From the NCBI GenBank assembly GCA_913020555.1, contig CAJWAC010000001.1:62001-126000 (forward strand): a stretch of 64,000 bases of DNA, read 5' to 3'. The notes under the pieces are model-generated. The model saw nothing but the letters and a program-made list of their open reading frames with translations, ran no database searches and had not been told where the DNA came from. The position numbers and the translations under genes are program-made. Every line of letters starts with the position of its first letter. The stretch's first letter is position 1. This document shows positions 8,399 through 46,421 of this stretch, in pieces. Source of the DNA: an uncultured Polaribacter sp. Its GTDB lineage: Bacteria; Bacteroidota; Bacteroidia; Flavobacteriales; Flavobacteriaceae.

Positions 8399-8532
8399 CT
8401 TTTTGATGATTTTAGTTTTTTGATTTTACTATTTGCTTGCAAACAAGTTTAGCCCTGATTGAAATGGCATCCTTTTTTATTTTTCATAAAAAAGATATAA
8501 TGTAAAGCAGGAAATAGCTTCTTATAAATGTG

Positions 8533-29447: not shown

Positions 29448-29463
29448 TGTTCCACGAGGAACA
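29448..29463. promoter_or_regulatory. parS-like site 1
   Basis: TGTTCCACGAGGAACA; one base from the perfect palindrome TGTTCCACGTGGAACA; intergenic, 3' of mnmG. Confidence 0.6.
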
Positions 29464-31370: not shown

Positions 31371-31386
31371 AGTTCCACGTGAAACT
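31371..31386. promoter_or_regulatory. parS-like site 2
   Basis: AGTTCCACGTGAAACT; core 14 nt GTTCCACGTGAAAC identical to the canonical parS core; intergenic, 5' of mnmG. Confidence 0.65.
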
Positions 31387-31839: not shown

Positions 31840-34800
31840 CAGAAAAATACGCTCTGACTTTCTTTTTATAATTTTGCTGCAAAGGTAATGATTGTCTATT
31901 TAAAATCTCTATTTGATTGTAAAACTGCTTTTTGAACTGTATGGCTTTTACCTTATTCCGTTGGTTTTCCGTTTTGTTCGCTGTAGATTTTCTTTTTTTA
32001 TCTTTGCCTTGTTCTAAAGCAGCCTTTTCAAGTTTCAACAGCTCGTAATTTAAGTTTTGCATTTTTTGAAGAGTTCCGGAATTAAATCCTTTTTCTAAAA
32101 TCTCGTTCTCTAACTCTTCCATCGACTTTAGAGCTTTCTTGGCATTTCCATTTCCTCCTGACTTTCCGTTTTCACTCTCTTTAATAGCGTTTTGTAACTC
32201 CTGCCTTAATTGAGACTGCTGTTTAAAAATCTCATATAATTCACCGTCCAAATCATCGTTAACATCCCCACCTTTTCCCTTTCTATCTCCTTCTTTTCCT
32301 CCTTTACCTTTGTTACCTTTTTCCCCTGGTTTACCTGGTTTACCTTGTGAATCCGTTTTGTTTCCATCTTTACCCTGTCCCTTTTTATCACCTTTCTGCA
32401 TTCCATCTTTCATCTTTTTAGATAAACCTTCCTGTTTCTTTATCAAATCTGGTAAGCTAAAACCCTGTCCTTTCCCTTTCTTTCCTTTTCCCATTTTCAT
32501 AGACATGCTATTTTGCATGCTATTTAACATATTACTCAAATAGTCAGCCAAATTATTGGTAGCTGTCATTACATAACGCTGATTAGAAATGCCGTTACTA
32601 AATCTATTTTCAGAGAAATTATACAAAGATTGATCTAAATTATAATGCGCTAAAGAAAGGTCGTCTTGAATTTTAGTAGATATTTTTGGAACACGCATTG
32701 CCAAAACATACAAGCTATCATCAATATGCTCAAAATAAGTTTTAATTTGATTTTGTTTTTTCAGGTCTTTACCAAAATCTGGATGAGATGTTGAAGTCTC
32801 GCTAAACTTATCCATTAATTGTTCTTGTTTAAAAGAAAAAATGACTAAGTTTTCAAGTATTTTACGCAAATCGTCCATGTTTTCTTCCATAGCATCTCCC
32901 TGCATTTCCATCATACCTTTTTGCATTTTGGTAGCCATTTCTTTCATCTTTTTAGATGATTGCTTTTGATTCTTTTTAGCCTCTTGCTGCTTTTGATTGT
33001 TTAAATTTTCTTCAGATATATTCAATTCTTTATCAATATCTTCCTTTTCATCTTCTACATCTGGCAATTCTATTGGTTCTTTTAATTTCTCATTATCCTT
33101 ATCTAATTCTTCCAATTCTTTTTTGATGTCTTCAAACTCCTTTTTAATGCCTTTTTGAGCTTCCAAGTTATTCTTTTCACTCTTTTCTAAGTCCTTTTGT
33201 TTACCTGATAATTCTTCAATTTTATTGGCAATTTGCATTGTTTTTTGCTCAACGTAAAATCGCTTTACCATTTCTAAAGTTTTTTCTAAACTACGCTGTT
33301 GTTGTTTATTCTGTTGAGCCAATTCTTTTGCTTTTTTAACTAAATCTTCTTTATTTAGTTTGTCTGCCATTTTTTGAATTTCATCAAGCAACTTTTGTTG
33401 TTTTTCTAATTTTTTAAGTTCCTTAATACGTTCTTTTAAATCCTCTTTTTTTTCTTGTAATGATTCATCTTTTTCCACTTTTTCATCTAGATTTTCTTGC
33501 AATTTATCCGTTTGCCTTTGCATCATCTTTTTGTATTGCTCTTGACGTTTAATGAAACTTTCAACCTTTTTTTTATCATTCCAGTTAATATTCTTTTTGT
33601 TTTGTAAATCTTGCTGAATATTTTCTAATTGTTCTTGTTGCTTTTTTTGTTTTTGAATGGAATTCTCAAGATCATTAATTGTATTTCTTTGCTCCTGTAA
33701 TAGTTCTTCTTCTACCTCATCATCTGTCTTTTGTCTGTAGGTGAAAATTTTACTTTTTGCTTGTTTACTTCCATTTATACCATCATTGTCAAATACCTGA
33801 AAAAATAGCTCGTAATTCACTCCTTTCTCTAAATTCAATCCATCAGGAAATTGATAGAAAAATGTCTGGATGTTTTGTTTACTAATTTGAAGATCAAAAT
33901 TTTGTTTTTGTTCTGGTTTATCTTCATTATAATACACCAATCTTAATTTTCTTAATCCGTAGTCATCAGAAATTTGCCCTGCAAATTGTGCTGTTCCACG
34001 TGAAATACTATCAATATTTGAACTTACACTAATTAAGGGAAATTCGTCTTTTATAACATCTACAGAAAACTGCAAGTTCTCATAATCTTTTAAATATTTG
34101 TTTGATGAAGAGATTTGATAATTCAGTACTTTACTAATTTTCTGCTCATATTCAAAATTATCATCATCTATATTTTTAAATAATGCTCTTTTGTTTTTAC
34201 TTATAAAAGTAATTTGATCTGCTTGTGAAGTCTTTACCTTCCATGTAATATTAGTACCTTCAGGAACTATTAAATTCCCTGAATTTTGAATCTTTTCGTT
34301 TCTTCTATTGAGATATCTTGGATAATTGAGCTCTAAATAAATATTATTAATAGTAGGAGTTTTAATTACCTCTATTTGATAGTTTTGAGATTGAACTCCA
34401 TTTGATTCTAAATAAAAAGTAATCGGTTTTTGAACATCAGAAAATGTGTAACTAAAAGAAGCCTTACCATTACTTTGTAAATAATAATTTTGATTATCAA
34501 AAATAATATTTGCTTCATTAGGTACTACATTTCCAGCAGTTTTTATAGCAAGAGTAATTGGTTCACCTTGAATAACCTTTAGACTGTTGTTTTCTACAAT
34601 AAAAGCAAAAGGAGCTGGCGGATTATAGGCTGTTCTATAATTTACAACACGTTCTAAACTATCATTAATAAAACCATTAGTCGTTGTAAACAAACTAATT
34701 ACATAAACTATAATAGGTAAAACAGCATATTTTAAATACTTTTTATTCTGTTTAAAATCAATTGCTTTTGCAAAAGGGATAGGTTGTAATTCTGATGATT

Positions 34801-41899: not shown

Positions 41900-44122
41900 C
41901 TAATCTTCTATTAAATTAAAATCTAAATGCTTGCGTTCTAAATCTGTCTTTTTTACTTGTACTTGAACATCATCTCCTAACTGATACATATGTTTGGTAG
42001 ATTGTCCGATAATTGCATATTGATCCTCATCAAAAATATAATAATCATTTTTTATATCTCTAATTCTAACCATACCTTCGCACTTATTTTTAGTAATTTC
42101 TACGTAAATTCCCCATTCTGTAACTCCTGAAATTACACCAGTAAAAATTTCATCTTTATGATCTTGCATGTATTTAACCTGCATGTATTTTATGGAATCT
42201 CGTTCTGCTTTACTTGCTAATTCTTCACGTTTAGACGAATGTTTACACTTCTCTTCGTAAACTTGTTGTTTTGGAGTATTTCCATCATCTAAATAATGTT
42301 GGAGTAACCTATGTGTCATTACATCAGGATAACGCCTTATAGGTGATGTAAAGTGACTGTAGTAGTCAAAAGCTAATCCATAATGTCCAATATTTTGAGT
42401 TGTGTAGACGGCTTTAGACATTGTTCTTATGGTTAAAGTTTCAATCATATTAGATTCAGCTTTGCCGTTAACATCACTTAATAATTGATTTAAAGAGTCT
42501 GAAATAGTTTCTTTAGTGTTTGTGTTAATTTTATAACCAAATTTACTAATAATATTTTGCAGAGAGGCTAATTTTTCAACATCTGGCTCATCATGTACTC
42601 TATAAATAAAAGTTTTGTTTGATGGCTTCCCTCCTTTTGCTTTTCCAATAAATTCGGCTACTTTTCTATTAGCTAATAACATGAATTCTTCAATCAATTT
42701 ATTAGCATCTTTAGAGGTTTTAAAGAAAACCCCAACAGGATTTGCTTTCTCATCTAAATCAAACTTAACCTCTGCCCTATCAAAAGAAATTGCACCTTGT
42801 TTCATTCTTTTTTTACGAAGAATTTTAGCCAATTCATCTAATTTTAGAGTTGCTTCTACAATTTCTGGAATTACCTCATAAGCTTCATCAATAATAGAGA
42901 TTTCTAAAGGCATTGTATAAGGTTGAATAGCTTCAGATAATTTGCAATTTTCAATAATAGATTGTGCCTCTTCATATGCAAAACGTTGATCTGAATAGGT
43001 TACAGTTCTACCAAACCATTCATTTATAATTTGCGCTTTTTCATTGATTTCAAAAACTGCAGAAAATGTCAATTTTTCTTCATTAGGTCTTAAAGAACAA
43101 ACTCCATTACTTAGCATTTCTGGTAACATTGGTACTACTCTATCTACTAAGTAAACTGATGTTGCTCTGTCATAAGCTTCAGCATCTAAAATAGTATCTT
43201 TTTGTAAGTAATGAGAAACATCTGCAATATGTATTCCTATTTCAAAATTTCCATTTTTTAATTTTTTAAATGATAAAGCATCATCAAAATCTTTAGCATC
43301 TTTTGGATCAATTGTAAAAGTTAAATCACTTCTCATATCTCTACGTTTTGCAATTTCTTCATTTGTAATTGCAACAGGTAAATTTTCTGCTTCTTTCTCA
43401 ACTTCTAAAGGAAACTCGTAAGGCAAATCGTATTCTAATAAAATAGAATGCATTTCTGTATTATGATCTCCAGGTTTTCCTAAAACCTTAGTTATTTTAC
43501 CAAATGGATTCTTAGAGTTTTCTGGCCAATCAGATATTGTGGCTTGTACTTTATCTCCATGCACTGCTCCATTAATTTTATTTTGAGAAATAAAAATATC
43601 TGCATACATTTTGTTACTGTCTGGTATAACAAAACCAAAATTTTTATTCATTTGCAATACACCAACAAATTCTGTTTTTGCACGTTCTAAAACCTCAACT
43701 ACATCTGCTTCTAATTTATTTGATCTTCTTTTTTTATAAACATAAGCTCTTACAATATCACCATGTAAACCTTTACCTAAGTTGATATTTGGAATAAAAA
43801 TATCGTTTTCATAATCATCAGAAATAAAATATCCGTTTCCATTTGATGTTATATCTAGTGTTCCTAAAGCATACTTTCTATCTTCATTTATTTGAAATTT
43901 TCCTCTATCTATTTCTTTAATTTTTTTAGTTGCTGTAAGTTCTGCTAACTTCTTTAAAATTTGAGTTTTTCCATCTGTATCAGAAATTCCCATTTTTCCT
44001 GCAATTTGTTTATAATTAAAATGTTTTGAACTGTCTTCATTTAATATTTTAAAGATATTTCTAGTTAAATCTTTAATAACTTTTCCTTTCTTTTTAAATA
44101 TCTTTTTTTTCTTTCTTGTCAT
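41900..44122 (-). CDS. rnr: Ribonuclease R
   Basis: DLTFTIDPKDAKDFDDALSF; HYGLAFDYYSHFTSPIRRYPDVMTHRLLQ; C-terminal S1 domain. Confidence 0.97.
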   Translation of the reverse strand: MTRKKKKIFKKKGKVIKDLTRNIFKILNEDSSKHFNYKQIAGKMGISDTDGKTQILKKLAELTATKKIKEIDRGKFQINEDRKYALGTLDITSNGNGYFISDDYENDIFIPNINLGKGLHGDIVRAYVYKKRRSNKLEADVVEVLERAKTEFVGVLQMNKNFGFVIPDSNKMYADIFISQNKINGAVHGDKVQATISDWPENSKNPFGKITKVLGKPGDHNTEMHSILLEYDLPYEFPLEVEKEAENLPVAITNEEIAKRRDMRSDLTFTIDPKDAKDFDDALSFKKLKNGNFEIGIHIADVSHYLQKDTILDAEAYDRATSVYLVDRVVPMLPEMLSNGVCSLRPNEEKLTFSAVFEINEKAQIINEWFGRTVTYSDQRFAYEEAQSIIENCKLSEAIQPYTMPLEISIIDEAYEVIPEIVEATLKLDELAKILRKKRMKQGAISFDRAEVKFDLDEKANPVGVFFKTSKDANKLIEEFMLLANRKVAEFIGKAKGGKPSNKTFIYRVHDEPDVEKLASLQNIISKFGYKINTNTKETISDSLNQLLSDVNGKAESNMIETLTIRTMSKAVYTTQNIGHYGLAFDYYSHFTSPIRRYPDVMTHRLLQHYLDDGNTPKQQVYEEKCKHSSKREELASKAERDSIKYMQVKYMQDHKDEIFTGVISGVTEWGIYVEITKNKCEGMVRIRDIKNDYYIFDEDQYAIIGQSTKHMYQLGDDVQVQVKKTDLERKHLDFNLIED

Positions 44123-45215: not shown

Positions 45216-45404
45216 ATGAAAAATCTACGTAAAATTATTATTTTATTTGCTTTTATATTCATTACAGGAATTACTGTTACTGTAATTACTATAAATACCT
45301 CTTTAAATAAAAAAGATACAACTAAAAATACTATTGAAATTCATAAAGATACTTTATACCTTTTAAAAGCAGAAAAGAAAAAAAAGTATTCTGCTTCTTT
45401 TTAA
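45216..45404 (+). CDS. Small hypothetical single-TM protein
   Basis: 62 aa, one hydrophobic helix; no homology evidence. Confidence 0.4.
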   Translation: MKNLRKIIILFAFIFITGITVTVITINTSLNKKDTTKNTIEIHKDTLYLLKAEKKKKYSASF

Positions 45405-45992
45405 ATTTCAATCATAACTTTTTCAAAGTTTATGTAGCCAACGTATATAATTTTAAATTTATTTTTTACAGTTATCAACATTCTATATTATAATTATTTT
45501 TCTTTTATAAAATTTAAAAAAACAATGATGTTTATAATAGTATGTGAATAGCAGCAGTAAATTTTTTTCTTTTTCTTTTTGTATATCACTTATTAAAAAG
45601 CATTCACAACTTATTAAAGTTTAAAAGCTTTAAAATCAATTATAATTAAGAGTTATTAACAAAAGTTATAAACAGCTATTCACTTAATTCTATTTATAAA
45701 TTATTTATTTTTAATGTAAACAAATTGTAAATTTTATGTTGATAAACTTTTATTAAAAACTCAAAATAAAATTTGCATATATCATAGAATGCATTGTATT
45801 GTAATTATTTTAGAAATCACCAAAAAAAGTTTCGAGTTTTTAATGATAAGTTCTTAACATTTACTTAAAATAGATAAACTCTTTAATAATAAGTAGTTAT
45901 TAAATATTGATAAATTTTGATTGTTTATAACTGTTCATAACTGCTATTTTATATATTTTTGTAATATTCAACTTAATTAAAATCAATAAATT
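45405..45992. other. Very AT-rich ORF-free region with a cluster of TTATNAACA motifs; candidate oriC/DnaA-binding region
   Basis: Motifs at 45472-45480 (TTATCAACA), 45653-45661 (TTATTAACA), 45666-45674 (TTATAAACA); reverse orientation at 45529-45537 (TGTTTATAA), 45737-45745 (TGTTGATAA), 45922-45930 (TGTTTATAA), 45932-45940 (TGTTCATAA). Confidence 0.5.
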
Positions 45993-46421
45993 ATGACAAT
46001 TGCCATTGGTAATGATCACGCAGGAACTCAATATAAATTCGAAATTATAAAACATTTAGAAAATAAAGGCTATACAGTTTTAAATTTTGGAACAGATACA
46101 AATGATTCTATGGATTATCCTGATGCTATTCATCCAACTGCAGATTGTGTAGAAAGCGGAAAAGCTGAATTAGGAATTATATTATGTGGTTCTGGAAATG
46201 GTGCACAAATGACCGCAAACAAACATCAAGGAATTAGAGCTGCATTATGTTGGAATAATGAATTAGTGGCGCTTACAAGACAACATAATAATGCTAATAT
46301 TCTTACAATTCCTGCACGTTTTGTTTCTTTACAGCAAGCAATTGGTTTTGTAGATGTATTTTTAAATACAGAATTTGAAGGTGGACGTCATGCAAATAGA
46401 GTTGATAAAATTTCTTGTTAA
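45993..46421 (+). CDS. rpiB: Ribose 5-phosphate isomerase B
   Basis: MTIAIGNDHAGTQYKFEIIKHLENKGYTVLNFGTD; GIILCGSGNGAQMTANKHQGIRAALCW. Confidence 0.96.
   Translation: MTIAIGNDHAGTQYKFEIIKHLENKGYTVLNFGTDTNDSMDYPDAIHPTADCVESGKAELGIILCGSGNGAQMTANKHQGIRAALCWNNELVALTRQHNNANILTIPARFVSLQQAIGFVDVFLNTEFEGGRHANRVDKISC

What the first reader, a model, noticed from the sequence alone, without database searches (positions are those of the whole stretch)
45405..45992. 588-bp AT-rich gap with seven TTATNAACA motifs: candidate replication origin or DnaA-binding locus
Seen directly: an ORF-free and extremely AT-rich gap holding seven nonamers of the form TTATNAACA in both orientations (starts 45472, 45529, 45653, 45666, 45737, 45922, 45932), plus a near-match CTATTCACA (reverse, 45543-45551). 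Two are only 13 nt apart (45653/45666) and two 10 nt apart (45922/45932). By rough hand estimate the chance expectation for this composition is well under one. TTATNAACA is one base from the classical DnaA box TTATNCACA. It lies about 11-16 kb from the parS-like cluster, the usual parS-oriC arrangement. Against: gene orientation does not switch cleanly at this point, dnaA is not adjacent within the window, and a few TATTTTTG-like promoter bases for rpiB also sit here.
Basis: partly seen in the sequence, partly recalled or inferred. Interest (0 to 1): 0.62.

Follow-up and report, generated by a model that had tools for sequence, protein, structure and literature searches.

The report
Chromosome replication origin beside rpiB
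This AT-rich gap is very probably the place where a Polaribacter-like marine bacterium starts copying its chromosome; related bacteria keep the same layout, so it is a well-supported but ordinary kind of element (a bacterial oriC), far from the dnaA gene that software often uses to mark the start.

Summary
Seven TTATNAACA nonamers lie in 45405-45992 (GC 16.8%); 0.26 are expected and none of 20,000 composition-matched sequences reached seven. Other AT-rich stretches of the contig hold 0.3-1.1 per kb against 11.9 in the gap. The interpretation also holds: this is most likely oriC.

Evidence:
- In 70 genomes of the family the region upstream of rpiB holds 213 TTATN(A/C)ACA boxes against 19.5 expected.
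- In 27 Polaribacter/Tenacibaculum-type relatives the boxes sit at fixed distances from rpiB. They are 94% conserved, against 75% outside the boxes, with the N position often the freest.
- GC skew flips near this gap. In two closed relatives the change-point interval contains it, in a third it lies 4 kb away, and in a fourth the cumulative G-C minimum falls about 0.3 kb from the boxes.
- The only parS sites (2-3 per genome) lie 8-57 kb away.
- dnaA lies 0.20-0.48 genome lengths away in all 20 closed relatives, so its absence here does not count against oriC.

An origin beside mnmG, as published for a relative, fits worse in all seven genomes tested. It is a new member of a known kind. No experiment was run.

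The parts
45472..45992 (.). putative oriC: AT-rich DnaA-box array, conserved from the first box to the rpiB start codon
   Evidence: sequence conservation among 28 Polaribacter/Tenacibaculum-type sequences starts at the 45472 box; almost nothing conserved in 45405-45470
45472..45480 (+). DnaA box 1, TTATCAACA
   Evidence: eight specified positions 93-100% conserved, N 43%
45529..45537 (-). DnaA box 2, TTATAAACA (least conserved)
   Evidence: present in many but not all relatives
45543..45551 (-). degenerate box CTATTCACA
   Evidence: read directly; core TGTnAATA conserved
45653..45661 (+). DnaA box 3, TTATTAACA
45666..45674 (+). DnaA box 4, TTATAAACA
45737..45745 (-). DnaA box 5, TTATCAACA (invariant in the clade apart from N)
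45851..45859 (+). degenerate box TTCTTAACA, conserved block
45922..45930 (-). DnaA box 6, TTATAAACA
45932..45940 (-). DnaA box 7, TTATGAACA
45483..45542 (.). candidate unwinding segment (among the least stable 60-bp segments of the 64 kb)
   Evidence: nearest-neighbour stability scan; inference only. Segments starting at 45677 and 45858 are also in the bottom twelve
45954..45961 (+). probable rpiB promoter element TATTTTTG (Bacteroidota TAnnTTTG type)
   Evidence: conserved block; promoter type from general knowledge
45993..46421 (+). rpiB, the syntenic marker gene
   Evidence: Pfam LacAB_rpiB 9e-56
45216..45404 (+). conserved 62-aa ORF left of oriC
   Evidence: tblastn hits in Polaribacter/Tenacibaculum loci; no Pfam family
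41900..44122 (-). rnr (RNase R), on the left arm
   Evidence: Pfam RNB 8e-107
29448..29463 (.). parS-like TGTTCCACGAGGAACA
31371..31386 (.). parS-like AGTTCCACGTGAAACT
33992..34007 (.). parS-like TGTTCCACGTGAAATA

Best explanation
The gap is the chromosomal replication origin (oriC) of a Polaribacter-like member of the Flavobacteriaceae. DnaA, made from a gene far away on the chromosome, binds the array of TTATNAACA boxes in both orientations over about 470 bp. It oligomerises, melts one of the very AT-rich segments between them, and loads helicase for two divergent forks. parS sites 12-16 kb away then serve ParB-dependent segregation of the new origins. Shown by computation: box clustering, position-specific conservation, synteny with rpiB, skew flip at or near the locus, nearby parS, distant dnaA. 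Inferred: DnaA binding, the melting site, helicase loading, actual initiation, and the role of parS.
For: Seven boxes against 0.26 expected. 213 against 19.5 over 70 family members, 52 individually significant. Fixed positions (-521+, -464-, -340+, -327+, -255-, -71-, -61- from rpiB) across named Polaribacter and Tenacibaculum; box conservation 0.94 against 0.75 outside. Closed relatives: G029 and G098 third-position skew change-point intervals contain the gap; G106 cumulative G-C minimum at 2,644,766, with boxes at about 2,644,030-2,644,430, and chromosome-scale flips for origin and terminus half a genome apart in G106 and G116; G000's own contig has its cumulative minimum about 2 kb from the gap. 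parS 8-57 kb away in 18 closed genomes. Lowest-GC 500 bp of the surrounding region in G000, G029, G013, G098 and G051. Box clusters upstream of rpiB also in other families of the order.
Against: No experimental data. The skew change-point is imprecise: its bootstrap interval misses the gap by 6.7-13.3 kb in G106 and by 10-36 kb in G055, and the signal is weak in G116 and G051. 18 of 70 rpiB-upstream regions are not individually significant and a few have no exact box at all. dnaA itself was not found in the incomplete assembly. DnaA binding to TTATNAACA was not tested.
Confidence: 0.93

Rival explanations
1. The true origin is beside mnmG, 14-16 kb to the left, as Ori-Finder reported for Mariniflexile litorale; the boxes upstream of rpiB would be a DnaA-titration or secondary site.
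For: PMC11278836 reports the predicted oriC adjacent to mnmG; parS flanks mnmG in G000.
Against: No exact DnaA box between 27.6 and 36.2 kb of the window and almost no intergenic space around mnmG (about 47 bp on each side). The skew model fits worse at the mnmG/parS position than at the gap in all 7 closed genomes, most clearly in G029 where parS is 40 kb away (RSS 251.5 against 119.0). Two Mariniflexile loci have boxes upstream of rpiB.
Confidence: 0.04
2. The boxes are a DnaA-dependent regulatory region of rpiB, or a DnaA-titrating (datA/DARS-like) locus, not the origin.
For: The two rightmost boxes lie just upstream of a conserved TAnnTTTG-type promoter element.
Against: An array spanning about 470 bp with extreme AT content is far larger than a promoter operator, and it coincides with the skew switch and parS neighbourhood.
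Confidence: 0.02
3. The cluster is a by-product of AT richness.
For: The motif is AT-rich and the gap is the AT-richest stretch of its contig.
Against: Composition-matched null, other AT-rich DNA and positional conservation of the specified box letters all speak against it.
Confidence: 0.01

Closest known systems
Bacteroidota oriCs predicted by Ori-Finder / DoriC (Prevotella intermedia, PMC4755523; Elizabethkingia meningoseptica, PMC8994065)
   Same: DnaA-box cluster at a GC-skew switch, far from dnaA; 476-649 bp predicted
   Different: those predictions used E. coli-type boxes (TTATCCACA, one mismatch allowed). Here all seven exact boxes carry A at position 6 (TTATNAACA), and the locus is tied to rpiB by synteny and position-specific conservation
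Escherichia coli oriC
   Same: multiple 9-mer DnaA boxes in both orientations, AT-rich DNA (general knowledge; PMC5742627)
   Different: box is TTATnCACA; no test made here for IHF, Fis, SeqA or GATC elements; in E. coli oriC lies between gidA(mnmG) and mioC (PMC10225481)
Mariniflexile litorale oriC call (PMC11278836)
   Same: same family; authors saw that dnaA does not match the skew
   Different: placed adjacent to mnmG; the present data place the origin of relatives upstream of rpiB

Membership tests
DnaA-dependent bacterial oriC | cluster of DnaA boxes, more than chance | tested here: met
DnaA-dependent bacterial oriC | boxes conserved in position among relatives | tested here: met
DnaA-dependent bacterial oriC | canonical box TTATNCACA (not defining across bacteria: box sequence varies by lineage) | tested here: not met
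   0 in the gap; relatives use both TTATNAACA (172) and TTATNCACA (41). [quoted passage not shown]
DnaA-dependent bacterial oriC | AT-rich unwinding element | tested here: inconclusive
   very AT-rich, several of the least stable segments lie here, but melting is not testable in silico
DnaA-dependent bacterial oriC | at the GC-skew minimum or strand switch | tested here: met
   G029, G098 and (cumulative minimum) G106 precise; others within a few to about 40 kb or weak
DnaA-dependent bacterial oriC | parS in the neighbourhood (usual, not defining) | tested here: met
DnaA-dependent bacterial oriC | adjacent dnaA/dnaN (common, not defining) | tested here: not met
   dnaA 0.20-0.48 genome lengths away in 20 closed relatives; reported as usual in the phylum (PMC4755523)
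DnaA-dependent bacterial oriC | DnaA binds and replication starts here | not testable with these tools
   needs footprinting, coverage or plasmid assays

The most novel reading that the evidence does not exclude
Across Flavobacteriaceae, and probably much of the order Flavobacteriales, the origin has a fixed home upstream of rpiB. In the Polaribacter/Tenacibaculum clade it uses a shifted box, TTATNAACA, read by a DnaA whose Thr435 equivalent is alanine (RDHATV), while dnaA stays far from the origin.
Probability: 0.6. Interest if true: 0.5.

Novelty: new member of a known kind. Interest (0 to 1): 0.42.

Why it matters
It gives a sequence-defined, testable oriC for a large group of marine bacteria in which genome records are often rotated to dnaA, which lies far from the origin. 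A reliable oriC coordinate is needed for growth-rate estimates from ori:ter coverage in metagenomes, for correct strand analyses, and for building replicating plasmids in Flavobacteriaceae. It also argues against the published mnmG-adjacent placement in one relative and offers a simple question about DnaA-box recognition.

Tried and rejected
Origin at mnmG: rejected by skew fit and absence of boxes. AT-richness artefact: rejected. A specific link between the alanine at the Thr435 position of DnaA and the A-type box: not supported, since RDHATV is in all 20 closed family members including those with TTATCCACA boxes, and KDHATV is in 19 of 30 DnaAs from other families of the class. Earlier regexes for this failed or were too strict. 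First upstream counts were wrong for minus-strand loci because of orientation and were redone. Rfam found nothing in the gap, and no tRNA lies in the window. One multi-region fetch failed on size and was repeated.

Full report
Observation. The gap, 45405-45992, is 16.8% GC. A Markov null of the same composition gives 0.26 sites on average, and none of 20,000 reached seven. The motif is not over-represented in the genome at large: 379 sites against 471 for the reversed control. Nor is it dense in other AT-rich DNA: 0.29-1.10 per kb in AT-rich stretches of the same contig and 0.00-0.24 per kb in a large sample of the closed congener G116, against 11.9 per kb here. No sampled 600-bp stretch of G116 (800 kb) or G106 (400 kb) held more than three. 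The canonical TTATNCACA is absent from the gap and occurs once in the window.

Context. The window is 62001-126000 of a 174-kb contig of an incomplete assembly (2.59 Mb, 141 contigs, 76.5% complete). Its rpiB is up to 95% identical to Polaribacter records. Left of the gap lie rnr (-), a DAGK/YegS-type kinase gene (+) and a 62-aa ORF (+); right of it rpiB (+). Further right is recA, identified by reading its sequence.

Comparative evidence. In 70 genomes of the family (nearly all from different genera), the 800 bp upstream of rpiB hold 213 TTATN(A/C)ACA boxes against 19.5 expected; 52 regions are significant one by one. 172 boxes have A and 41 have C at position 6; the commonest preceding base is G. 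Related genomes are not independent, so the total should not be read as a probability. The stronger test is position. In named Polaribacter and Tenacibaculum the boxes recur at about -521(+), -464(-), -340(+), -327(+), -255(-), -71(-) and -61(-) from the rpiB start. In an alignment of 28 sequences the specified box positions are 94% conserved against 75% outside. The N position is the least conserved column of its box at five of the seven sites. That is the mark of a protein-binding site. Conservation begins at box 1 (45472), so the functional element is probably 45472-45992, somewhat shorter than the gap. The same arrangement, with fewer boxes, is seen in other families of the order.

Replication asymmetry. 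Stretches sampled round two closed chromosomes show the global pattern. In G106 the gene-strand-corrected third-position skew flips from negative to positive between 2.605 and 2.805 Mb (rpiB at 2.644 Mb) and back near 0.5 Mb, half a chromosome away. In G116 the cumulative minimum is near 0.72-0.86 Mb (rpiB at 0.862) and the opposite flip near 2.2 Mb. At fine scale the cumulative G-C minimum of G106 is at 2,644,766, next to the boxes. On G000's own contig it is at 109,769, about 2 kb right of the gap. In G029 and G098 the best change-point interval contains the gap; in G013 it is 4 kb off. G106's third-position change-point is 7-13 kb to one side and G055's 10-36 kb; G116, G063 and G051 are weak or broad. 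Skew can therefore place the origin only to within some kilobases; the boxes supply the precise position.

parS and dnaA. parS-like sites occur two or three times in most of the closed genomes, typically about 1.9 kb apart (G108 had none at one mismatch; G116 and G022 one). They lie 8-57 kb from rpiB in 18 closed genomes. In the window they flank mnmG and lie at 29448, 31371 and 33992. dnaA is 0.20-0.48 genome lengths from rpiB in all 20 closed relatives. That agrees with the statement in PMC4755523 that oriC in Bacteroidetes is commonly far from dnaA.

The mnmG alternative. Ori-Finder placed the origin of Mariniflexile litorale adjacent to mnmG (PMC11278836). In the window there is no exact box around mnmG, and two Mariniflexile loci carry boxes upstream of rpiB. 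In all seven closed genomes tested, a skew switch at the rpiB gap fits better than one at the parS position taken as the mark of mnmG. In G029, where they are 40 kb apart, the residuals are 119.0 against 251.5. The mnmG call may reflect the use of that gene as an indicator, but that is an inference.

DnaA. The recognition-helix motif is RDHATV in all 20 closed family members; E. coli has RDHTTV (PDB 1j1v alignment). The changed residue matches Thr435, where T435M is defective in box binding in E. coli (PMC5742627). It is tempting to link this to the A at box position 6, but family members with TTATCCACA boxes have the same motif, and 19 of 30 DnaAs from other families of the class also carry alanine. 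So it may relax recognition but does not explain the shift. The window's own dnaA was not found in the incomplete assembly.

Mechanism and verdict. Most likely DnaA fills the array from both orientations, melts one of the AT-rich segments (the scan puts segments at 45483, 45677 and 45858 among the least stable of the window), and two forks leave. The DnaA, melting and initiation steps are inferred from well-known oriCs. The two boxes nearest rpiB lie just upstream of a conserved promoter-like element (45954-45961), so DnaA may also influence rpiB; this is untested. I rate oriC at 0.93. It is a new member of a known kind, notable for its uniform A-type boxes and tight synteny rather than for a new mechanism. 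DoriC could not be queried, so a prediction for a near relative may already exist there; an Ori-Finder oriC is reported without coordinates for Tenacibaculum dicentrarchi (PMC4759079).

Noticed in passing
window 45216-45404 (+): A 62-aa ORF immediately left of the origin is conserved as protein in Polaribacter and Tenacibaculum (45-76% identity in the better hits), with no Pfam family; function unknown.
   Followed up: partly
window 29448, 31371, 33992: Three parS-like sites, two flanking mnmG and one inside the long gene to its right; only 2-3 such sites per genome in most closed relatives.
   Followed up: yes
closed relatives G116, G106, G022 and 17 others: dnaA lies 0.20-0.48 genome lengths from the rpiB origin in all 20, so it is never in the origin-proximal part; whether this reflects selection on dnaA copy number is open.
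   Followed up: partly
L013, L021, L121, L126, L130, L152: Family members with no exact box in the 800 bp upstream of rpiB (several with a less AT-rich upstream region); rpiB or the origin may have moved, or the boxes may be degenerate.
   Followed up: no
window 8447-8518 (+): Flavo-1 RNA (Rfam RF01705), 72.9 bits.
   Followed up: no
window 45954-45961: Conserved TAnnTTTG-type promoter element of rpiB just downstream of boxes 6 and 7; possible DnaA control of rpiB.
   Followed up: no
G055 around 1.59-1.66 Mb (L275-L279): Skew change-point lies 10-36 kb from rpiB, between it and parS; a local insertion or rearrangement is possible.
   Followed up: no
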